Assembly: GCA_020216745.1 (NCBI GenBank) | Contig: JAIWNQ010000191.1 | Span: 1-10,000 of the forward strand | Reading direction: 5' to 3' | Length of the DNA: 10,000 bases | Source of the DNA: Candidatus Hydrogenedens sp. | GTDB taxonomy: Bacteria; Hydrogenedentota; Hydrogenedentia; Hydrogenedentales; Hydrogenedentaceae | Shown here: piece after piece, positions 1-10,000 of the stretch | How positions within the stretch are numbered: position 1 is the first letter of the stretch | How the letters are laid out: every line of letters starts with the position of its first letter | Made by a program: the position numbers and the translations under genes | The notes under the pieces: model-generated | Seen by the model: the letters and a program-made list of their open reading frames with translations, nothing else | What the model was told of the DNA's origin: nothing | The model's database searches: none

Positions 1-107
1 AAGACATAAAGTTATACATTGAGAACAAGAACACATATTTAGTATTCTTTATTGCTATAATTTTGCCATTTCTTTTTTTGTGCCTATATATAAGGAATGT
101 TTCATGA
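1..107 (+). CDS. 3' end of an unidentified membrane protein gene
   Basis: An open frame enters from the left edge (first full codon at 3) and ends at TGA 105-107, giving 34 visible residues. The visible tail is a charged and polar stretch (DIKLYIENKNTY), then one strongly hydrophobic segment of about 18 residues (VFFIAIILPFLFLCLYI), then a short basic end (RNVS). This is the look of a C-terminal membrane helix with a cytoplasmic tail. The other two plus-strand frames are closed early by stops at 7 and 20. The stop overlaps the ATG of the next gene as ATGA, and that gene's Shine-Dalgarno lies inside this frame, so the two are very probably co-transcribed and translationally coupled. The family cannot be named from this fragment. 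A membrane-bound glycosyltransferase or another envelope enzyme would suit the context, but that is only a guess. Confidence 0.6.
   Translation, partial: DIKLYIENKNTYLVFFIAIILPFLFLCLYIRNVS
95..106 (+). promoter_or_regulatory. Shine-Dalgarno and ATGA overlap that decide the start at 104
   Basis: AAGGA at 92-96 precedes ATG 104 by a normal distance, and the ATG overlaps the TGA of the upstream gene (ATGA, 104-107). The in-frame GTG at 80 follows a T-rich run with no ribosome binding site. This supports the shorter start and coupled translation. Confidence 0.7.
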
Positions 108-3100
108 AAAGAGTAATAATCACCTTGATAAAATTTATTATTACTTTTGGACTATTTGTATTGCTTTTCTGGCCTGAAACTTTTGGTCTATCACCTAACA
201 CCTTCGGAGGAATAAAACCATCTTCTTTGATAAACGAAATCCGTTCTTTAAATCCATCTCATGCTATCCCTTGGATATTATTTGCACTATTTATACGGCT
301 TGGTGGAATCATGTGTGGAGTTATTCGATGGAAAATACTTTTGAATGGCCAAAATCTATATATACCATTTTCATATATGACCCAAAGTTGGTTTATCGGC
401 CGTACCATTGGTATTTTTTTACCCAGCACCATTGGTTTAGATGGGTACCGTCTATATGATTCTGTCCGTTACACGGGGGATATTGTTCGCTGTACTACTG
501 TTATTTTCATCGAGAAAATTATTGGGTTTATATCATTAACAACCCTTGTCTTTTTGACTTTCCCTTTGGGTTTTCGATTATTGAAATTTAATACGTTAAT
601 ATTACTTATCATTCTCCTTATATTGGGTTTATCTGTCCTCTTCTTCCTTTCATTACTTATTCAACCTTATATCATTCAATTCATTTTGTACTCCATTCCT
701 GTGCCTCAGAAAGTAAAGAATCTCCTAAACCGTTTAGGCTCGTCTGCAACTGCCTATGCAGGCCATAGAAAATATCTCCTCTTAGCAATCTTATGCGGAC
801 TGGCTGTTCATTTAAGCGCCTGTTTTATGTATTTTGGGACTATGATGGCTCTTCGTTCTGAGAATACCAGCCTTTGGGATGTTTTATTTGCAAGTCCGTT
901 AATGATTTATGGAACGGTATTAGGACCTTCTATTGGAGGGGAAGGTATCCGCGAAATTGTGTTTGCAACTCTGCTGGGTGGAAAAGAAAACACATTAAAA
1001 GTCGTTGCTTTTGCTCATTTAGGATGGTGGATTGGTGATGTAGTTCCATTCCTGATTGGTTTACCTTTCCTCATTTTCCGCAAGCGACCTCAAAAAGAAG
1101 AGATTCAAAGACAAATGCAAAACATTCATCAGAGCCATCAAATTACAGACACCTTCTCTGCCGAAATTAATGTAGATGAATATCACATCATTAGAAACCA
1201 AATTGTAGTCAATATAATAGCAAGTATATTGGGTAGCGTTACTGCTGGTAGTATGTGCGGTCTATGTGAGTCTTTATGGATAACGCATATAATACCCAAC
1301 TTAAAGGAATACCAATTATTGTGGTGGAGTCCGTTAATCTACGGGATTGCTTCCATAGCAATTGGTATCTCCGTAGGTATTTTTATATGTTCGTGGATAC
1401 CTTTGCTAATTCGCAGTTTTCCATCTTCTGCCTTTTCTTACTCCATTTCATTTTTTGCTACATTGTTTTCTGTAGGTCTTATCCTTATACTTTGGAGGTA
1501 CTATAGAGATATTCTCATTCAAAAACCCGCTTCTTACATAACATATCTACCTATATCCATTTACTCCCTCGGGGGTATGATTATTATCTCTACAATTTTA
1601 TACACCATGAGTTTTTATCTCCTAAAAATGTTTAGGAAAACTATAATCCTTGTTTCACTTATATTAGCCATAATACCTACATTATTAGGGTTCTGTATTC
1701 CTGTATTATTTTCATTAAAAACTGAAACCCATCCTATATCCTTAGCTAAAGCCCCTCAAAATGCTCCTAACATTATTTTAATAATTGCAGATGCTCTTCG
1801 TGCTGATTATCTACCTATGTATAACCCATCTATAGAAACAGTCACACCAACATTAAATCATTTCGTTGAACAGTCCATTCTATTTATGGATTGCAGTGCT
1901 CAAGCTTCATGGACAAAACCTTCTTTTGCGTCAATTTATACTGGCACAATACCTTCCAGACATCATGCCACTTCAAAAAATGCCGTGATTAATCCAGAAC
2001 TTCCGACTCTTGCAGAAGTTCTTTTTCAACATGGGTACTATACAAAAGGATATGCAAATAATCCTAATGTTTATTCTATCTTTGGATTTGATAAAGGCTT
2101 TGTTGAATATACAGAACTTGAAACGAAACGTGCGCTCTTTGCGAAGGCATCCAGCTCAAAATTGACGATATATGAAATCTTACGTCGTGTCCATGGAAAA
2201 ATCTACACAACCCTTTCGAAACTATTAAAGCGTCCTCCCGATATAAAAGGATATTACCAACCTGCAGAAGCAGTAACATCCGAAGCAGTCCATTGGTTAA
2301 ATAATCGCCCTTATAAAGAAAATCCGTTCTACCTCGTTTTACATTATATGGATACGCATGACCCTTATTTGAATAGAAATAATTCTACGTTTTTTGCTCG
2401 GGCTCTTCTTGGTAACACACCTAAAAGTGCTCTAACACCACCTATGAGAGAAGCATACATTAGTGAGATTGAACATTTAGATAAACATTTAGGAACTCTT
2501 TTTAATGAATTAAGTAAACTTGGCTTAGATGAAAACACATACATTATTTTTACTGCAGACCATGGAGAAGAATTTGAAGACCATAATGGCTGGTGGCATG
2601 GTTTTACCCTATATCAAGAGATGTTACATGTCCCATTAATCATCAAGGTTCCCAAAACAAACCTCAACAACGCGCCTGTAAACAAAAGGATAGCTTCGTT
2701 AGTACGGCTTATTGATATTCCCCCGACAATTCTTGAAGTTGCTGGGATTGAATCTCCAAATACTTTTGAAGGGAAGTCGTTATTAACTCAAGGAGGTGAT
2801 ATTGCTGAATCAGATAACAACATTTATACATGGGCAGAAAATGAAATAGAGGGACAAATTATGCAATCAGTTCGCAACCAACAATTTAAACTTATCCTAT
2901 CATACCCCGAAAATCCCCGTGGATTAAAACCAGAAGAATTATACGACCTGAATAATGATTCAAAAGAACTACAGAACCTATCTCATATTCCTGATTTCAA
3001 ACAAATAAAGAATAGTCTCATGAATATTATCAATGAAATAAAAAATAGTGGCTCTACAAACAACATTACTTCCCAGCCAAAACAGGTTTCATTGCCAACA

Positions 3101-3142
3101 GAATTACAAGAAAAACTCAAAGCAATCGGCTATATGGAATAG
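104..3142 (+). CDS. Flippase-like membrane domain fused to a sulfatase/phosphotransferase-fold domain
   Basis: The product has 1012 residues in three blocks. Residues about 1-328 form a membrane domain of roughly eight helices resembling the UPF0104/MprF-type lipid flippase family, with FLPSTIGLDGYRLYD at 105-119 and PSIGGEGIRE at 275-284 at the expected places. After a polar linker (about 328-365), residues 366-550 hold five or six more helices that I cannot assign. Residues about 556-1012 are an alkaline-phosphatase-superfamily (sulfatase) domain, with metal-ligand Asp563 in ADALRAD, the nucleophile loop WTKPSFASIYTG, Asp819-His820 in ADHGE and His832 in WWHG. It ends in the family-typical LKAIGY tail. 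The nucleophile position is Thr604 instead of Cys or Ser, so a formylglycine sulfatase is unlikely; LtaS and EptA use Thr for phospho-group transfer. My inference is that it modifies an envelope lipid or glycan outside the inner membrane. ATG 104 is preferred to GTG 80 because AAGGA lies 8 bases upstream and it overlaps the previous stop. Confidence 0.85.
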   Translation: MKRVIITLIKFIITFGLFVLLFWPETFGLSPNTFGGIKPSSLINEIRSLNPSHAIPWILFALFIRLGGIMCGVIRWKILLNGQNLYIPFSYMTQSWFIGRTIGIFLPSTIGLDGYRLYDSVRYTGDIVRCTTVIFIEKIIGFISLTTLVFLTFPLGFRLLKFNTLILLIILLILGLSVLFFLSLLIQPYIIQFILYSIPVPQKVKNLLNRLGSSATAYAGHRKYLLLAILCGLAVHLSACFMYFGTMMALRSENTSLWDVLFASPLMIYGTVLGPSIGGEGIREIVFATLLGGKENTLKVVAFAHLGWWIGDVVPFLIGLPFLIFRKRPQKEEIQRQMQNIHQSHQITDTFSAEINVDEYHIIRNQIVVNIIASILGSVTAGSMCGLCESLWITHIIPNLKEYQLLWWSPLIYGIASIAIGISVGIFICSWIPLLIRSFPSSAFSYSISFFATLFSVGLILILWRYYRDILIQKPASYITYLPISIYSLGGMIIISTILYTMSFYLLKMFRKTIILVSLILAIIPTLLGFCIPVLFSLKTETHPISLAKAPQNAPNIILIIADALRADYLPMYNPSIETVTPTLNHFVEQSILFMDCSAQASWTKPSFASIYTGTIPSRHHATSKNAVINPELPTLAEVLFQHGYYTKGYANNPNVYSIFGFDKGFVEYTELETKRALFAKASSSKLTIYEILRRVHGKIYTTLSKLLKRPPDIKGYYQPAEAVTSEAVHWLNNRPYKENPFYLVLHYMDTHDPYLNRNNSTFFARALLGNTPKSALTPPMREAYISEIEHLDKHLGTLFNELSKLGLDENTYIIFTADHGEEFEDHNGWWHGFTLYQEMLHVPLIIKVPKTNLNNAPVNKRIASLVRLIDIPPTILEVAGIESPNTFEGKSLLTQGGDIAESDNNIYTWAENEIEGQIMQSVRNQQFKLILSYPENPRGLKPEELYDLNNDSKELQNLSHIPDFKQIKNSLMNIINEIKNSGSTNNITSQPKQVSLPTELQEKLKAIGYME

Positions 3143-3316: not shown

Positions 3317-3532
3317 TCATAACTTAATTGCATGCTTACATTTACTTCGTATCTCCTCGGGACACTGATCTATATATTGACAACAATGCTCTGATGAATT
3401 CCCTACTATTTCGCACGCCTTTGCACTTCGCTCACCTAATCGACGTTTTGCTAAAAGGTGAATACACACCCATGCACATCCGAATATCGAAGTTAAAATA
3501 ATTGTTAATAACAAGGTATATATAATGTTCAT
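3317..3532 (-). CDS. Small Cys-rich membrane-anchored protein, unknown function
   Basis: This is a 71-residue protein with one N-terminal hydrophobic segment (about residues 3-25) and a basic, Cys-rich soluble tail. It has seven cysteines (19, 23, 40, 50, 51, 57 and 65). Four or five lie in the tail as C-x9-CC-x5-C-x7-C, a spacing that could hold disulfides or a metal. The segment could be a membrane anchor or a signal peptide. IFGC at 16-19 is only a poor lipobox because of the Phe, so I do not call it a lipoprotein. The start ATG (3532-3530) has AGGAAG four bases upstream, a good but tight ribosome binding site, and an extended -10 promoter sits about 50 bases upstream. It reads towards the fusion enzyme gene and is followed by the putative 39-residue frame. 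I recognise no family; small cysteine-rich redox or metal-handling proteins would be candidates. Confidence 0.65.
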   Translation of the reverse strand: MNIIYTLLLTIILTSIFGCAWVCIHLLAKRRLGERSAKACEIVGNSSEHCCQYIDQCPEEIRSKCKHAIKL

Positions 3533-3680: not shown

Positions 3681-6600
3681 TTATTTTTCCTCCTCAATAT
3701 AGATATAAACATAAACGTATTCGACAATCGGATTATTGAAAATAGAATTAAATGAAAATTCTAAAATACTAAGATAAATACCAGGTTTTAACTTCGATAC
3801 TTTATTTTCGTCAAGTGCAACCATAAGTTCAAATGGGGTCTGGTTCTCAAAAATAATTCGGTCTTTTTCATCTGGTATTTCTATATCCTCATAATAATTC
3901 CCTTCTGCCACTTTAAAATCCCATTTTAATCCGACGTTAGTCGGTCTATGACTTCCCCCGATATTATAAAGATAAAAAGTGATTGCACCACCTCTGTTTA
4001 GTGAAATTTCATTACCATCACCCATTGCAGGGTCACTCACAATTTTAGGATATGGATTTGATGTCATAAAAGATGGATTATTTACTATTTCGAACAAGTT
4101 AGGATGAGTAAAGTATTTTGAATCTGGATATGCAGATATTTGCGGGTCTATAACATCGAATTCCAAATTAAATTCCTGAGTAACATTATCAAAATGCAAC
4201 ACACACAAAGGCCCAAACGCACCATAAGGTAATGGGGTATTCGTTGGTGAAGAGAAAGTAAAAATAGTTCCTGCTTGTGAAAAAGTCCAATCAGAAATAA
4301 TTCCACCTTGGGCAGGTGTAGGTTGTGATACAGACATTGTCATCCCTGCATTTCCCCCTGTTGTATTTACAGAGAACTGAAGTCTTGTAATATTTCTTGG
4401 CATATAATCAGAATATACGACGACATCAACAGCATTAGAATTTATTCCAGATGATATTAATTTAATTTGTCCTAACCTTACGTCGTTTGCGTACGTTAAT
4501 AAATCAACATTGGAATAACTAAAGGTGGTTGATATTTCTCCTTGGTCAGGCAAGCATAGGCTGTTATCATCCGCTGGGGAATTGAATGATAAATTCATCG
4601 TAATCGTAGCACCTGATTTTTGGTTTAATGCAATATATTCAAACAAAATTTGACTCTTTATATCTTCTGCAATCGAACGGTCACATGGGTCAGATGGATT
4701 TGTTTGTAGCCAATCCTCTAATGTAGACAACAAAGGTTTTGTAATAGGTCTTCCTAAACTATCTACTTCGCCTGTATCTTGATTCCGTGTTGAATAGACA
4801 TGTCCACCTGTTTCCTCAATTAATTGGAACAGAATATTATTATTAATTTTTTCACCCCAGCCAATAATTAACGGACGAACTCGGGTCATTTTTAGGAAAT
4901 CCGTTACTGGACTCATCTCCCCCGGAGGTGTGGTTAACTGACCATCTGTAATTAGCAACATAATACGGTCATCAGACACATCAAAGGGGACATGGTATCC
5001 ATCTGCAAGATATATTTCTAATGCCCCACTTGCTATTGCAGGAAGCAATGCCGTTGCACCGTGGTCAATAACATCTATATTCAGTAACCTGTTTTTTGCA
5101 ACATCCCGATTAAATGTAAACAGTGGTTCCCCATCGTTATTTATTAATATCCGTATTGAACTATCAAACCACTCTCTTTCATTAAATAAAGCCAAACCTA
5201 TCTTATAATTTTCGGGAATCTCATCAATCATAGGCAATACTGTACGAATATAAAATTCCCTAAGAGGGTCATCAGCATCCGATATGCCAGTTTCTCCCAT
5301 AGATTGAACTGACTTTAACATACTTCCAGAGGCATCCAACAAAATTAATATAGTCCCATTATGAGGAATTAATCTCTCAGCTTTTACAAACGGGATTAAG
5401 AATCGATTTGATTCAGTAACATCCAGAGATAGGTCATCCTCCGTTATTAAGAATTTATCTGCTAATACAGGCAAAAAGCTTTCTGGAAATTGTATCGCTC
5501 GTTGTTGCACATCTCGTAATGTCATCACAAAACGGACTAAAGAAGGTATTCGCAGATTAGGGGGTGCCATCTCTGGAGTTAGCGCAGGTGCGGAAGCGGT
5601 AATTGTTACAATGGCAGGCTCTATAGAAGTATCTATTTCTAAATTTCCATCCACAATTTTCGTGGCTACCACACTTATCTGACCAGAAGCATTCGCTCCT
5701 TCTAACTTTTCCCTATCAATCGCTACAGAAATTGTTTTCCAGTCTTTCATTTGCCCCGAAGTACCAAAACTGACTCCTGATTCCGGAAAAACAGATATCC
5801 AATCTTTATTAGGTATAAGCATAAAATTCAAAATTGTTTCCGGATCTCCTACATTTGCTACATCAAATGTTCTCAACATCTCTCTAAGACCATAGTTTAA
5901 TGCCTTGGGGAGAGTTCCTATTTTCGGCATTTTTGGAACCTGTACCTCTACTAACAATTTAACATTGGGATTATTTATATCATTCGATTTGATTGATAAC
6001 TCATAGACATCCCCTAAATATGTGAGGGTATCACGACTAATATTAATCTTTACCTTTTGTTCTTTTCCTTTAGCTAATGAACCCTGCAAAGGATTTATAC
6101 CTGTTATCCATGCTGGTAACTGACTCGAATCTATTTGCCATTCTAATGTTCCATTGCCATTATTTTTTATAGTAAATTCTTGTTCTATCTCCTCAAAAGC
6201 AAAGTTGATAAAAGGCAATCCACTACTATCTAACCCCTCCGCCTCAATTACAATTGCGGGTATTTGTGGAATAGACATACTTACCTGGACCAAAACGGTA
6301 TTGGATGCTGTGGAAGACTCAACAACATTCCCCGTGATACTAAATTGATGCTGATACGATGGACCCTCTGCTTCATTTGCTAAGGACCTGTCTACCTTCA
6401 CTCTTAATAAATCTGTCTGAGAGCCTTTTACCTGTCCTGAAGCGATACCCTGTGAATTAACTGGCGTAATACTTAACCATGTCGGGAAAGATGTGGTGTC
6501 TATCTGCCATGCAATTGTATCTTCTCCATCATTCCAAATAGCTAATACCTCTTCAGAACGAAGCTCACCGAAATTAATCAGTGTTGGCAAAGCCACCAAT

Positions 6601-7892
6601 TTAGGGGCTCTGGATGCCTCCATTTGTACATTTACTACTGCTGAACCCCAATTTGAACTTATCGTTACACTTCCACGATAAGCACCCACTCTAACTGCTA
6701 TTGGGTCAGCCTCAACCGTCACTGTTTGCGTCTCGCCCGCAGCGATATCAGCATTAGCAGGGTTTAATCTTAACCATGTGGCGTCCTCCGGAATAGCAGA
6801 GGTCCAACGCCATGATACCGGCGCCAAGTTCGTTACCGAAAATGTGGATGTTTGACGTTCTCGTATCTTCCCAAAATTAATATCTGTTGGTGAAACAGAT
6901 AAAGCAGGGATTCTCATTCGGACGGCGACCGGAAGTGTAAATCCTGACGCTACATCGATAACATTAAGAGTCCCTGTATAGTCATTAGGTACCAAACCTT
7001 CTGGGTTTGCAACAACTGGGACAACAACTTTTTGATTTGAGGACAGGGTAAACTCCGATGTTTGCACAGATAACCAATTTGTAGAGCCTTCTGAAATTTG
7101 AATTCTAATAGATACATCTCCTGTCCCTAAATTAGTTACCGATAAATCTTGTTGAGATACTGAACTAATTAATCCAAATTGTATCTCTCCCGGACTGACT
7201 TGTATTGCAGAGACTTCCATGCTCACAGGAATCTGCAACTCTTGAGAATCTGCTGTAATTTTAACCGTTGTCTGATATACTCCAACAGACAAACCACTAC
7301 GATTCACACGAAATGTCAGAACTACATCCCCATTAGCAGAAATCTCCCCTGTCTTGGGAACGACTGTTAACCATGTTGCATCATTTGAAATAGAGACACT
7401 CCAACTACTACTTATTCTACTTTGGTTCATCAAACTGACCTGAAGCTCCGTTAATACAGGTCCAAAATTTAACTCAGTCGGATTTACAGATAATTGCAAT
7501 ACCGCTGGCTTGGTAATACTAACCCGAACCACCTTTGTGCTACCACTACTTTTTACATATACTTCCCCAACACTGGTTCCCTCTGGCAATAAGGAGCGGT
7601 CTGCTATTAAGTCAATAAATCTTACTTTTTCGCTCGATAACTTTCCACTAATTGTAGTTCCCGTTGTTACCCCCCCATCTTTAGATAATTTTAACCAATC
7701 ATTTTTTATTTCCGCTTCCCATTCCCAATTCCCTCTTCTATTAAAAACAATCCGTATGGATTCTCTTGTCGAAACTTCACCGAATGTTACTGTTTCAGGT
7801 TCAACATAAAACTGAACAGATGGACATCCTGTTAAAATTATTAAACTTAATACAACATAAATTGAATAAAGTATCTTTTTTCCTTGCCTCAT
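3681..7892 (-). CDS. Large lipoprotein: seven BACON/ASH-like repeats, vWA domain, cohesin-like module
   Basis: This 1403-residue surface or periplasmic lipoprotein has a signal peptide (residues 1-22) with lipobox LTGC and acceptor Cys23. Seven tandem Ig-like repeats of 95-115 residues follow (about 28-768). Each opens with a P-x-x-x-(N/Q)-F/Y-G type strand and most carry a W(L/I)xxxP turn, as in BACON, ASH and choice-of-anchor families. A linker with an ITEDDLSL strand leads to a von Willebrand A domain (about 846-1050). Its metal site looks complete: DASGS at 853-857, Thr947 and TDG at 982-984. Residues about 1130-1265 form a cohesin-like module shared with the upstream gene, and the last 140 residues look like another beta domain. 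It is probably an adhesin or scaffold binding protein or glycan. The start is ATG 7892, with CAGGAG seven bases upstream. The longer TTG start at 7925 has no ribosome binding site and would put 11 residues before the signal peptide. It probably forms an operon with the upstream paralog. Confidence 0.85.
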   Translation of the reverse strand: MRQGKKILYSIYVVLSLIILTGCPSVQFYVEPETVTFGEVSTRESIRIVFNRRGNWEWEAEIKNDWLKLSKDGGVTTGTTISGKLSSEKVRFIDLIADRSLLPEGTSVGEVYVKSSGSTKVVRVSITKPAVLQLSVNPTELNFGPVLTELQVSLMNQSRISSSWSVSISNDATWLTVVPKTGEISANGDVVLTFRVNRSGLSVGVYQTTVKITADSQELQIPVSMEVSAIQVSPGEIQFGLISSVSQQDLSVTNLGTGDVSIRIQISEGSTNWLSVQTSEFTLSSNQKVVVPVVANPEGLVPNDYTGTLNVIDVASGFTLPVAVRMRIPALSVSPTDINFGKIRERQTSTFSVTNLAPVSWRWTSAIPEDATWLRLNPANADIAAGETQTVTVEADPIAVRVGAYRGSVTISSNWGSAVVNVQMEASRAPKLVALPTLINFGELRSEEVLAIWNDGEDTIAWQIDTTSFPTWLSITPVNSQGIASGQVKGSQTDLLRVKVDRSLANEAEGPSYQHQFSITGNVVESSTASNTVLVQVSMSIPQIPAIVIEAEGLDSSGLPFINFAFEEIEQEFTIKNNGNGTLEWQIDSSQLPAWITGINPLQGSLAKGKEQKVKINISRDTLTYLGDVYELSIKSNDINNPNVKLLVEVQVPKMPKIGTLPKALNYGLREMLRTFDVANVGDPETILNFMLIPNKDWISVFPESGVSFGTSGQMKDWKTISVAIDREKLEGANASGQISVVATKIVDGNLEIDTSIEPAIVTITASAPALTPEMAPPNLRIPSLVRFVMTLRDVQQRAIQFPESFLPVLADKFLITEDDLSLDVTESNRFLIPFVKAERLIPHNGTILILLDASGSMLKSVQSMGETGISDADDPLREFYIRTVLPMIDEIPENYKIGLALFNEREWFDSSIRILINNDGEPLFTFNRDVAKNRLLNIDVIDHGATALLPAIASGALEIYLADGYHVPFDVSDDRIMLLITDGQLTTPPGEMSPVTDFLKMTRVRPLIIGWGEKINNNILFQLIEETGGHVYSTRNQDTGEVDSLGRPITKPLLSTLEDWLQTNPSDPCDRSIAEDIKSQILFEYIALNQKSGATITMNLSFNSPADDNSLCLPDQGEISTTFSYSNVDLLTYANDVRLGQIKLISSGINSNAVDVVVYSDYMPRNITRLQFSVNTTGGNAGMTMSVSQPTPAQGGIISDWTFSQAGTIFTFSSPTNTPLPYGAFGPLCVLHFDNVTQEFNLEFDVIDPQISAYPDSKYFTHPNLFEIVNNPSFMTSNPYPKIVSDPAMGDGNEISLNRGGAITFYLYNIGGSHRPTNVGLKWDFKVAEGNYYEDIEIPDEKDRIIFENQTPFELMVALDENKVSKLKPGIYLSILEFSFNSIFNNPIVEYVYVYIYIEEEK
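3901..4550 (-). other. Cohesin-like module and C-terminal beta domain of the lipoprotein
   Basis: The module runs from NDVRLGQ (Asp1137) through SDYMPRN, a GGIISDW segment and YGAFGPL (Tyr1223) to KYF (Lys1259). The order of strands (a hydrophobic strand with LQFSV, then a G-x-I-S-x-W turn, then a strand ending in a small-residue turn and a final hydrophobic strand) resembles cohesin or cohesin-like carbohydrate-binding folds. That fold call is inference by eye. The same landmarks occur in the same order in the neighbouring gene. Two nearby cysteines (1070 and 1113) could form a disulfide linking the vWA domain to this module. Confidence 0.45.
5586..7811 (-). repeat. Seven tandem BACON/ASH-like protein repeats
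   Basis: Approximate residue ranges in the lipoprotein are 28-129, 132-228, 230-329, 331-429, 431-545, 547-655 and 657-768. Repeats 2 to 5 carry the clearest signature: (N/I)FG near the start, then DATWL or PTWL in the middle and a closing (L/V)xVxMxxxxP strand. Repeats 2 and 4 both have DATWL, and the DNA behind it is nearly the same (TTAACCATGT then GC on the plus strand near 7370 and 6770). Repeats 1 and 7 are the most diverged. The divergence argues for old duplications without recent homogenisation. Confidence 0.7.
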
Positions 7893-7898
7893 GCGAAG

Positions 7899-7904
7899 GC
7901 TCCT
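7899..7904 (-). promoter_or_regulatory. Shine-Dalgarno that sets the lipoprotein start
   Basis: The minus strand reads ACAGGAGCCTTCGCATG, with AGGAG about seven bases before ATG 7892. It lies in the 34-base gap after the upstream stop, so the two genes are probably translated from one message with separate initiation. Confidence 0.75.
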
Positions 7905-7926
7905 GTTTCTGATTAATAAGTTCAAA

Positions 7927-10000
7927 CTATGTATTCATACCTATATTTATGTTTAGTGTGCCAAATAAATCTGATTTTATGACAAGTACATCCTGAACTT
8001 GCGTTCCAGGAGCATATCCCGTTCTGTCTACATACAAAGTTACTATCTCTTTCTCTCCCGGAGCCAATGTTGACTTCGGAGTATTTGAATTTGCTTGTTC
8101 TCCATATTTTAGCTCTGTAACCCATGCAGGAGAAGATTGTATTTCCCATGAAAACGTATCCAATCGATTATTTATCACCGTAAAGGAAATTGAATTGGCA
8201 TTAGCAGGGATATTAAGTACCGTCGGTTTAACCCATGTTCCAGGGATATTTTTATCATTAGGCACAGGGTCCTGAAAATCAGGAAGCCCATCTTTATCTG
8301 CATCCCATACTCCTATATCTTCTGGATTAAAAGGCAATCCAGTAAGCCCTTCAATGGATGTTGAAGGTCCTGCTACTTTCGCGCTCGTAGTAATAGACAA
8401 CAAACCATCAAGATATGTAGGTCCGCCGGGGTATAAGAAATACTTGGTACGGGAACTCTGGCGAGGTGTCGCAGGACTAACGAGAGACTCATTATCCACA
8501 CGCATAGCCAGATTTAATATCGGCTCTGCATCTCCAAAAGACTGCACATACGTATCTAATCCGCTTAGTGTTATCTTAAACAAATTTCCAAACGCCCCAT
8601 AAGTAAATGCATTATCTTCTGATGTTAGGATAAGATAAATACCATCCCCCTCTTTAATAAACCTCCAACCACTATTTTCATATGATAATAACCCTCCTTC
8701 CGCAGGCTCAACATTCATCTGAACATTTGCAAGTAATAAATTCCATTGCGCATCCGTAACATCTTCAGGTTTTTGCAAGAAATAACGTGTCCTCAGGAAA
8801 TAAACATCCCTCGGTATATAATCTGCCCGAACAAATACCTCTGCTTGCCATGTTCTCCGTGTTGGATTTGTCGGGTCATTACCATAGAATAAACCTGAGG
8901 TTACTAATGACAATTGACCCGCTCGAACATCACCAATATAGGCAAATGCATCCTCTTCAAAAATACCAGTCAAAACAGGCAAATTTTCTCCAGGCTTATA
9001 TTCAAAACGAATCGTATACTTAAAATCTTTCTGCTTTGGTGTAATATACGTTAGAACCATCTGGTTCTTTAATTCCTCCCAGATACGACCTGCACCATCA
9101 TCAAGCCCAATAGATACACTTTCCCATCCTACTGTCTTGGATACTCCACTTACTTTGATAACTCCATCCCCATCGTTTGAAGTTATTGGAATTTCAGAAG
9201 TGACAACTACATCCGCATCTGCAAGTCCAGGTTGAGTTTTCACCGTAACTTTAACATTCCCCTTAGATGGTATCGTCCCTTGAGATGGTGTAATTTCAGA
9301 AATCCATTTCGGCAACTTGGATAAATCCGCTTGCCATCCAAGGTTTCCATCTCCCTCATTATATATATAGACACTTAAATCATTACCTGAACTTTGCAAA
9401 TCCGGCCTCAGAACCAATGATTTCTGATTACCCAATAACTGAACCAATTTGTCCACATCGTTTGCCACATACAAATGTCCACCCGTCTCAGTTGCAAGCT
9501 GAATTAGGTCTGCATTATTGATAGAACCACCAGAAGCAAACCCCAACGGATAAAGTCGAATCAAATTATCATGAGCCTTATTTTGGATATTACTTGCATC
9601 CACAGTAGAAGCATTGTCCCATCCGTCTGTAATAAAAACAATAGATTTTACGTCTGCATCATCAAACGGCAACGGATTTTTTGAATCTTCTGCCATAAGA
9701 CGGTCAATAGCCTCTGACAAAGCATCATAAATATCAGAAGCACCCATTAAATTTGGAGGCACATAAAAAGATTCCAGCGCATCTTTCAAGACGTCTTTAT
9801 TCGTGGTAAACGAACGGATTAACCGATTTGTTTGTTGCCTATCATTGTGTAACATAAGAGCAATCTGGTAAGAATCCGGTAAATCATAAATAAAATCAAC
9901 AACCGCTTTCTTTACCCTTTCAATCGCTTCTCCCGGTCTTAAAGGATTAATTTTATCATTTACACCTGCATAATACATACTACCTGTATAATCCAGTAAT
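7927..10000 (-). CDS. vWA/BACON/cohesin-like surface protein, N-terminus beyond the window
   Basis: The frame is open to the right edge; 690 residues are visible, ending at TAG 7929-7927. The first visible residues are LLDYTGSM, the vWA metal-binding motif with Thr for the usual second Ser, so an internal Met three residues later (9978) is not the start. The vWA domain continues through ITDGW and ETGGHLY to about residue 180. A BACON-like domain follows (about 195-285, WQADLSKLPKWI), then a cohesin-like module with GDVRAGQ, ADYIPRD, EGGLLS, YGAFGNL and KYFLYP. A calcium-loop segment WDADKDGLPDFQDPVPND comes next, and a final BACON-like domain (SSPAWVTEL, then LAPGEKEIV) closes the protein. 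A signal peptide should lie outside the window. It is the paralog and operon partner of the downstream lipoprotein and probably a secreted adhesion or scaffold protein. No sorting signal is visible at the C-terminus. Confidence 0.85.
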   Translation of the reverse strand, partial: LLDYTGSMYYAGVNDKINPLRPGEAIERVKKAVVDFIYDLPDSYQIALMLHNDRQQTNRLIRSFTTNKDVLKDALESFYVPPNLMGASDIYDALSEAIDRLMAEDSKNPLPFDDADVKSIVFITDGWDNASTVDASNIQNKAHDNLIRLYPLGFASGGSINNADLIQLATETGGHLYVANDVDKLVQLLGNQKSLVLRPDLQSSGNDLSVYIYNEGDGNLGWQADLSKLPKWISEITPSQGTIPSKGNVKVTVKTQPGLADADVVVTSEIPITSNDGDGVIKVSGVSKTVGWESVSIGLDDGAGRIWEELKNQMVLTYITPKQKDFKYTIRFEYKPGENLPVLTGIFEEDAFAYIGDVRAGQLSLVTSGLFYGNDPTNPTRRTWQAEVFVRADYIPRDVYFLRTRYFLQKPEDVTDAQWNLLLANVQMNVEPAEGGLLSYENSGWRFIKEGDGIYLILTSEDNAFTYGAFGNLFKITLSGLDTYVQSFGDAEPILNLAMRVDNESLVSPATPRQSSRTKYFLYPGGPTYLDGLLSITTSAKVAGPSTSIEGLTGLPFNPEDIGVWDADKDGLPDFQDPVPNDKNIPGTWVKPTVLNIPANANSISFTVINNRLDTFSWEIQSSPAWVTELKYGEQANSNTPKSTLAPGEKEIVTLYVDRTGYAPGTQVQDVLVIKSDLFGTLNINIGMNT
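8262..8316 (-). other. Calcium-binding loop of TSP3/dockerin type
   Basis: The encoded stretch DADKDGLPDFQDPVPND has the DxDxDGxxD spacing of a calcium-binding EF-hand-like loop followed by the proline-containing D-x-x-P-x-D continuation seen in thrombospondin type 3 repeats. Only one such loop is visible. It sits between the cohesin-like module and the last BACON-like domain and could be a rigid, calcium-stabilised joint. It is absent from the neighbouring lipoprotein. Confidence 0.6.
8422..8960 (-). other. Cohesin-like module of the upstream vWA protein
   Basis: From GDVRAGQLSLVTSGL (near 8930) through ADYIPRD, NVEPAEGGLLS and YGAFGNLFKITL (near 8595) to TKYFLYP, this region matches the lipoprotein's C-terminal module landmark by landmark. 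Here it is longer, with an insertion of about 15-20 residues around the PEDVTDAQWN stretch. The fold assignment is inference; the kinship between the two copies is visible directly. Confidence 0.5.

What the first reader, a model, noticed from the sequence alone, without database searches (positions are those of the whole stretch)
3901..8960. Shared, unnamed C-terminal module in two adjacent vWA proteins
Both proteins carry the same ordered landmarks after the vWA domain: (N/G)DVRxGQ-(I/L)xLxxSG, (S/A)DY(M/I)PR, an xGG(I/L)(I/L)S turn, YGAFGxL and KYFxxP. Overall similarity is otherwise low, so these residues are probably structurally important. The pattern recalls cohesin-like folds, but the YGAFG and DY(I/M)PR signatures are not ones I know from cohesins. 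This could be a distinct family of modules paired with vWA domains.
Basis: partly seen in the sequence, partly recalled or inferred. Interest (0 to 1): 0.7.

Follow-up and report, generated by a model that had tools for sequence, protein, structure and literature searches.

The report
Cohesin-like domain wedded to vWA lipoproteins
Two neighbouring bacterial envelope proteins share an unnamed domain that is predicted to fold like cohesin, a bacterial "socket" module, but in every case seen it is attached to a von Willebrand A domain and its number does not follow that of cohesin's usual partner, so it may be a new kind of adhesive head in one poorly known bacterial phylum.

Summary
p1 (3681-7925, -) and p2 (7927-9999, -, cut off by the contig end) share a C-terminal module of about 230-260 aa with all five landmarks in order. 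No Pfam family matches it above cut-off. Relatives occur in 53 of the 68 genomes searched of the window's phylum (Candidatus Hydrogenedentota).

All 93 module-bearing proteins examined carry vWA upstream. The pair is an old duplication, behind an LRR gene in 13 of 13 loci where this could be seen.

Verdict: a clade-specific variant of the cohesin fold, probably an adhesive or scaffolding head without dockerin; ligand unknown. The fold itself is not new.

The parts
3681..7925 (-). p1: 1414-aa ORF (class A); probable start at Met12 (nt 7892), giving 1403 aa like P0001, whose module is 98% identical
7824..7892 (-). p1 signal peptide with lipobox ...LILTGC (Cys34), followed by Pro
   Evidence: sequence; lipobox by a strict pattern in 32 of 42 related ORFs
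5586..7823 (-). p1 stalk: BACON/HYDIN/ASH-type beta-sandwich repeats
   Evidence: Pfam BACON_2 6 stretches, 3.8e-38; HYDIN Ig 2.8e-14
4650..5390 (-). p1 vWA domain (residues 846-1092), metal motif DASGS...TDG; no VWA family in the Pfam list
4491..4649 (-). p1 strand segment after vWA (first piece of the shared module; ...KSQILFEYIAL...)
   Evidence: model m3bb24800f58d strands 313-360; that it closes the vWA unit is inferred
4086..4490 (-). p1 cohesin-like domain with all five landmarks (second piece of the module)
   Evidence: alignment A1; model residues 366-500, pLDDT mostly over 90; no Pfam match; cohesin-like by homology to p2
3684..4085 (-). p1 C-terminal extension, no Pfam match
7927..9999 (-). 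p2: 690-aa open frame (class B), N-terminus cut off by the contig end
9436..9999 (-). p2 vWA domain (5'-truncated), metal motif DYTGS...TDG
   Evidence: Pfam VWA 2.1e-13; motif
9130..9417 (-). p2 BACON/ASH-like domain between vWA and module
   Evidence: BACON_2 2.4e-5, just under cut-off
8941..9102 (-). p2 strand segment before the cohesin-like domain (...ELKNQMVLTYITPKQ...)
   Evidence: alignments A1, A2; low confidence in the p2 model
8383..8940 (-). p2 cohesin-like domain with all five landmarks
   Evidence: model m680a67623336; Foldseek and VIA cohesin matches over model 60-245
7930..8379 (-). p2 C-terminal BACON-like domain
   Evidence: BACON_2 0.0096, below cut-off

Best explanation
The shared module is a divergent cohesin-fold beta-sandwich domain plus the short strand segment that closes the preceding vWA unit. 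It sits towards the far end of a lipid-anchored envelope protein: lipobox, beta-sandwich stalk of BACON/ASH repeats, vWA head with a metal motif, then the cohesin-like domain. p2 (B) and p1 (A) are old paralogues encoded together behind a small LRR gene with a lipobox, so the cell most likely builds a three-lipoprotein adhesive or scaffolding complex: the vWA metal site binds an acidic group on a protein or glycoprotein partner, and the cohesin-like domain gives a second, rigid protein-binding face. Its partner is probably not a canonical dockerin. Shown here: homology of the two modules, gene order, lipoboxes, vWA and cohesin folds by prediction, coupling to vWA in the proteins examined. Inferred: adhesion or scaffolding, a complex, surface exposure, metal-dependent binding, non-dockerin ligand.
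Confidence: 0.55

Rival explanations
1. It is a true but divergent cohesin that holds dockerin-bearing extracellular proteins on the cell, i.e. a lipid-anchored noncellulosomal scaffoldin.
For: Fold match. Dockerins are common in the phylum: 56 of 68 genomes, 7 matches in the window's own genome at E<=0.001, at least 63 in one genome. Module presence leans towards dockerin presence (46 of 53 with the module against 10 of 15 without; odds ratio 3.3, p 0.12) and towards canonical cohesins (48 of 53 against 10 of 15; p 0.035).
Against: Module number does not track dockerin number (rho 0.03, p 0.83), while canonical cohesin number does (rho 0.54, p 2e-6); 7 of 53 genomes with a module match have no dockerin at E<=0.001 (one, G015, has only a partial module match), and 10 of 15 genomes without the module have dockerins. 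Limits: no correction for shared ancestry, genome size or completeness; some canonical cohesins share an open frame with a dockerin (in G000 C274, C115, C294), which raises their correlation; and in the 42 genomes at least 90% complete presence and absence tell nothing (33, 4, 5, 0; p 1).
Confidence: 0.2
2. The domain is a passive structural spacer: a beta-sandwich that props up the vWA head, like the sandwiches around vWA in inter-alpha-inhibitor heavy chains or pilus adhesins, with no ligand of its own.
For: Downstream of vWA in 93 of 93 proteins; whole-model Foldseek rows include inter-alpha-inhibitor heavy chain and pilus proteins PitA and SpaC; the seven invariant columns of A1 are Q, G, G, W, G, F, P, mostly structural kinds.
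Against: Some relatives do without it: in G025 and G015 one match covers only the segment after vWA (query 32-83 and 31-83), so it is not needed there. It persists in class C proteins whose vWA metal motif has decayed.
Confidence: 0.25

Closest known systems
Cohesin domain (Pfam PF00963; e.g. C. thermocellum OlpC cohesin 4dh2, A. fulgidus noncellulosomal cohesin 2xdh)
   Different: No PF00963 match at E<=1; own signatures (DxRxGQ, ADYxPRN, GGxxxxW, YGxFGxL, KYFxxP); vWA upstream in 93 of 93 proteins; copy number independent of dockerins.
TMEM132 / coherin cohesin-Ig proteins (PMC6030884, passages read)
   Same: Membrane proteins combining a cohesin-homologous domain with Ig-like domains, with no detectable dockerins in vertebrates; adhesion proposed.
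   Different: Eukaryotic; 'von Willebrand' does not occur in that text; cohesin domain before, not after, the Ig-like domains. Comparison is by architecture only; no alignment was made.
vWA-bearing surface proteins (PitA, SpaC, inter-alpha-inhibitor heavy chain, 4fx5)
   Same: Structural matches of the p1 model, vWA beside beta-sandwich parts.
   Different: No cohesin-like domain is known to me in these (recalled); anchoring differs (recalled).
BACON / HYDIN / ASH (choice-of-anchor D) repeat proteins
   Same: The stalk belongs here: BACON_2 3.8e-38; NCBIfam choice_anch_D below cut-off, 40 against 45 bits.
   Different: Explains the stalk only, not the module.

Membership tests
Cohesin (PF00963) | Match to the curated profile above cut-off | tested here: not met
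   No PF00963 match at E<=1 for whole proteins or the cut domains
Cohesin (PF00963) | Cohesin beta-sandwich fold | tested here: met
Cohesin (PF00963) | Profile-profile similarity to bona fide cohesins | tested here: inconclusive
   hhalign P 0.5, reversed control 0.37, against only ten cohesins: no support, little power
Cohesin (PF00963) | Functional link with dockerins | tested here: inconclusive
   Copy numbers uncorrelated (rho 0.03) while canonical cohesins correlate (0.54); presence/absence odds ratio 3.3, p 0.12
Cohesin (PF00963) | Binds a dockerin | not testable with these tools
   Needs a binding experiment
vWA | vWA fold | tested here: met
vWA | Metal site (MIDAS): DxSxS and TDG | tested here: met
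   p1 DASGS and TDG, p2 DYTGS and TDG; the further Thr of the site was not examined; motif degenerate in part of class C
Bacterial lipoprotein | Signal peptide with lipobox | tested here: met
   p1 ...LILTGC at Cys34; 32 of 42 related ORFs by a strict pattern; p2's own N-terminus is missing

The most novel reading that the evidence does not exclude
A clade-specific branch of the cohesin fold that has left dockerins behind and become the second binding face of vWA adhesins, running an LRR-vWA-vWA lipoprotein operon that is a core envelope adhesion or assembly system of Hydrogenedentota.
Probability: 0.4. Interest if true: 0.62.

Novelty: new variant of a known kind. Interest (0 to 1): 0.48.

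Why it matters
What cohesin and dockerin domains do outside cellulosomes was called unknown in a 2017 paper (PMC5244752, passage). A cohesin-fold domain that is fused to vWA in every protein examined, conserved across a phylum, and independent of dockerin number would be a clean test case for cohesin-type domains with other ligands. It also gives a handle (an LRR-vWA-vWA operon) on the envelope of a phylum whose named records here are all MAGs, and a family definition that would annotate two or more unnamed proteins in most of its genomes.

Tried and rejected
Cohesin homology by sequence: hhalign of the core against ten Hydrogenedentota PF00963 cohesins was in the expected register but not better than the reversed control; a profile of A1 against PDB sequences gave only 3 unrelated matches, E 0.27 or worse. 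Both count against a sequence-level claim.

Spread outside the phylum: the genome-contig scan gave 17 loci; 13 are titled Hydrogenedent*, 3 'uncultured bacterium', 1 'Nitrospiraceae' (L051). The L051 genome gives the same places as G053, which genome search lists in the window's order, so that title looks wrong. Of the 51 proteins from the three protein searches 5 name an organism, each Hydrogenedent*. Other phyla were not searched systematically, so confinement to this phylum is not shown.

The fold search of the p1 model is filled by vWA rows, so the cohesin-like call was made on p2 and extended to p1 by homology. Enzyme function: no enzyme family in the Pfam lists of p1 and p2.

Literature: the listings of searches showed no paper on this module. 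'Hydrogenedentes' with 'von Willebrand' gave 0 papers. Of 464 and 23 papers in two searches only 20 and 12 were listed. Passages of four papers were seen. The library holds open-licence papers only. The review by Peer et al. 2009 is not held, so vWA-cohesin pairs described there cannot be excluded.

Limits of the counts. The 93 are 42 ORFs from fetched loci plus 51 database proteins, partly redundant and all gathered by the module; hits with E>1e-6 are outside (such as the 1022-aa ORF of L033, E 0.001). The vWA profile was built from rows of A3 (at most 25), mostly members of the same set, with a loose threshold (E<=0.01); L036 is a truncated 242-aa frame with a 40-residue vWA match. The protein searches were limited by length, so a free-standing module would be missed. 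The copy in L038 is missing because my ORF picker kept a longer frame on the other strand. The pattern misread the metal motif of L041 (DFTSS in alignment A3). LRR: profile search covered all loci fetched by then; besides the 13 it hit L053 (partial) and a 929-aa protein near a class C gene in L031; whether the loci L043-L059 reach upstream of B was not checked one by one.
Full report
Setting. The window is the whole of contig C148 (10,000 bases) of genome G000, 3.13 Mb in 295 contigs. Where relatives of its proteins name an organism, it is Candidatus Hydrogenedens or Hydrogenedentes/-ota, but for one title that looks wrong. The two proteins of the finding lie on the minus strand: p1 (3681-7925, 1414 aa as listed, probably 1403 aa from Met12) and, upstream of it, p2 (7927-9999), whose N-terminal half is beyond the contig end.

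The observation. All five landmarks are present in the stated order in both proteins. BLASTP finds the module pair at E 2e-9 and the vWA pair at E 2e-16. Database searches with the two modules found 25 and 6 proteins; a profile built from the window pair alone hits all 31 (they had been gathered by the module, so this shows that the two sets are one family). In the alignment of 32 modules (the window pair and 30 others) the recurring signature is DxRxGQ(I/L), (A/S)DY(M/I/V)PRN, GG(L/I)I-W, YGxFGxL and KYFxxP, with variations.

Is it a cohesin? By curated profile, no. By profile-profile comparison with ten canonical cohesins from the same phylum, not significantly. By function, the phylum offers a partial test. 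Canonical cohesins occur in 58 of 68 genomes and dockerins in 56 of 68; none of the six cohesin matches of G000 is in the window. Across these 68 genomes canonical cohesin number follows dockerin number (Spearman 0.54, p 2e-6), while module number does not (0.03, p 0.83); 7 genomes have a module match and no dockerin, 10 have dockerins and no module. Against this reading: by presence and absence the module leans towards dockerins (odds ratio 3.3, p 0.12) and towards canonical cohesins (4.8, p 0.035), some canonical cohesins share a frame with a dockerin, which raises their correlation (in G000 C274, C115, C294), relatedness, genome size and completeness were not corrected for, and one of the 7 (G015) has only a partial module match. 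I read this as evidence, not proof, that the module does not serve dockerins. A cohesin-homologous domain without detectable dockerins is known from TMEM132 in animals (PMC6030884, passages).

Coupling to vWA and the three classes. In 93 of 93 module-bearing proteins examined a vWA domain lies upstream (limits under Tried and rejected). In a tree of 44 rows they fall into three supported clades: A, like p1, with a long BACON/ASH stalk; B, like p2; and C, 16 rows of 460-829 aa (but for one truncated frame of 242 aa), 14 of them with a lipobox, away from the A-B pair in the fetched loci. Pfam sees a vWA above cut-off in 6 of the 9 class C proteins scanned, a weak one in 2, and none in 1 (L037). 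A and B each contain rows from eight families, so the window's pair is an old duplication and not a recent local one. The DxSxS-type metal motif is kept in the A and B rows (B has Thr at the second position; L041 reads DFTSS); the second motif read FSEG in one A row (P0014). Both decay in part of C. In G025 and G015 one relative matches only the segment after vWA and not the cohesin-like core.

Gene order. From the match list, counted by hand, 39 of 53 genomes carry B then A on one contig and strand within 5 kb; 6 have them on separate contigs, 4 have one of them, 3 have only class C, 1 has a partial match. In 13 of 13 loci (L013-L024, L033) an LRR gene with a frame of about 195-250 codons precedes B (nine of them built the profile); two were checked by Pfam (LRR_4 2.3e-13 and 5.9e-9). 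The nine sequences printed all have a lipobox-like GC(C/P/W) after a hydrophobic start. In the window this gene would lie beyond the contig end.

How it most likely works. Shown or directly read: lipobox, stalk repeats, vWA with metal motif, cohesin-like domain (predicted), co-encoded LRR protein with lipobox. Inferred: an envelope-anchored set of three lipoproteins acting as an adhesin or scaffold, with vWA binding an acidic ligand group through its metal and the cohesin-like domain giving a second face. The main doubt about location is the Pro after the lipid-bearing Cys in 24 of 32 detected lipoboxes, which may mean inner-membrane retention if E. coli rules applied (recalled). I put 0.55 on this reading, 0.25 on a passive structural role, 0.2 on a true dockerin receptor.

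Novelty. The listings of six searches show no paper on the module, and the two profile libraries used on these proteins gave no match above cut-off for it. The fold is known and both partners are known domains, so I call it a new variant of a known kind. It would deserve more if a non-dockerin ligand were shown.

Noticed in passing
window 80-3142 (+): 1020-aa protein fusing an LPG_synthase_TM (flippase-like) region to a sulfatase-type domain (Pfam 9.8e-19 and 3.9e-43); convergent with p1. Whether it keeps this place in relatives was not tested.
   Followed up: no
window 3317-3532 (-): 71-aa ORF downstream of p1 with one hydrophobic N-terminal stretch and several cysteines; no Pfam match.
   Followed up: no
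L081:8591-9382, L082:3680-6772, L087:5194-5970: Other proteins of the window's genome, two of them with a canonical cohesin match (L081, L087), end in repeats of the form DWxIxLxELLRVIQLYN; possibly an anchoring or docking repeat of its own.
   Followed up: no
G020, G033, G039: Large dockerin expansions: 63, 47 and 25 matches (the first two are lower bounds, candidates were capped), against 0-20 in the other 65 genomes searched, suggesting extensive noncellulosomal cohesin-dockerin systems.
   Followed up: no
L022:8932-10623 (+) and protein P0023: Class A protein with an EF-hand-like stretch inserted between vWA and the module.
   Followed up: no
class A, B and C N-termini: In 24 of the 32 detected lipoboxes the residue after Cys is Pro, which may bear on membrane sorting.
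   Followed up: partly
L031:1329-4091 (+): A 920-aa protein 0.6 kb upstream of a class C gene contains a stretch related to the LRR lipoprotein of the A-B operon (E 4.8e-26).
   Followed up: no
L051 (JAACEL010000105.1): A MAG titled Nitrospiraceae gives the same match places as G053, listed in the window's order, so the title seems wrong.
   Followed up: yes
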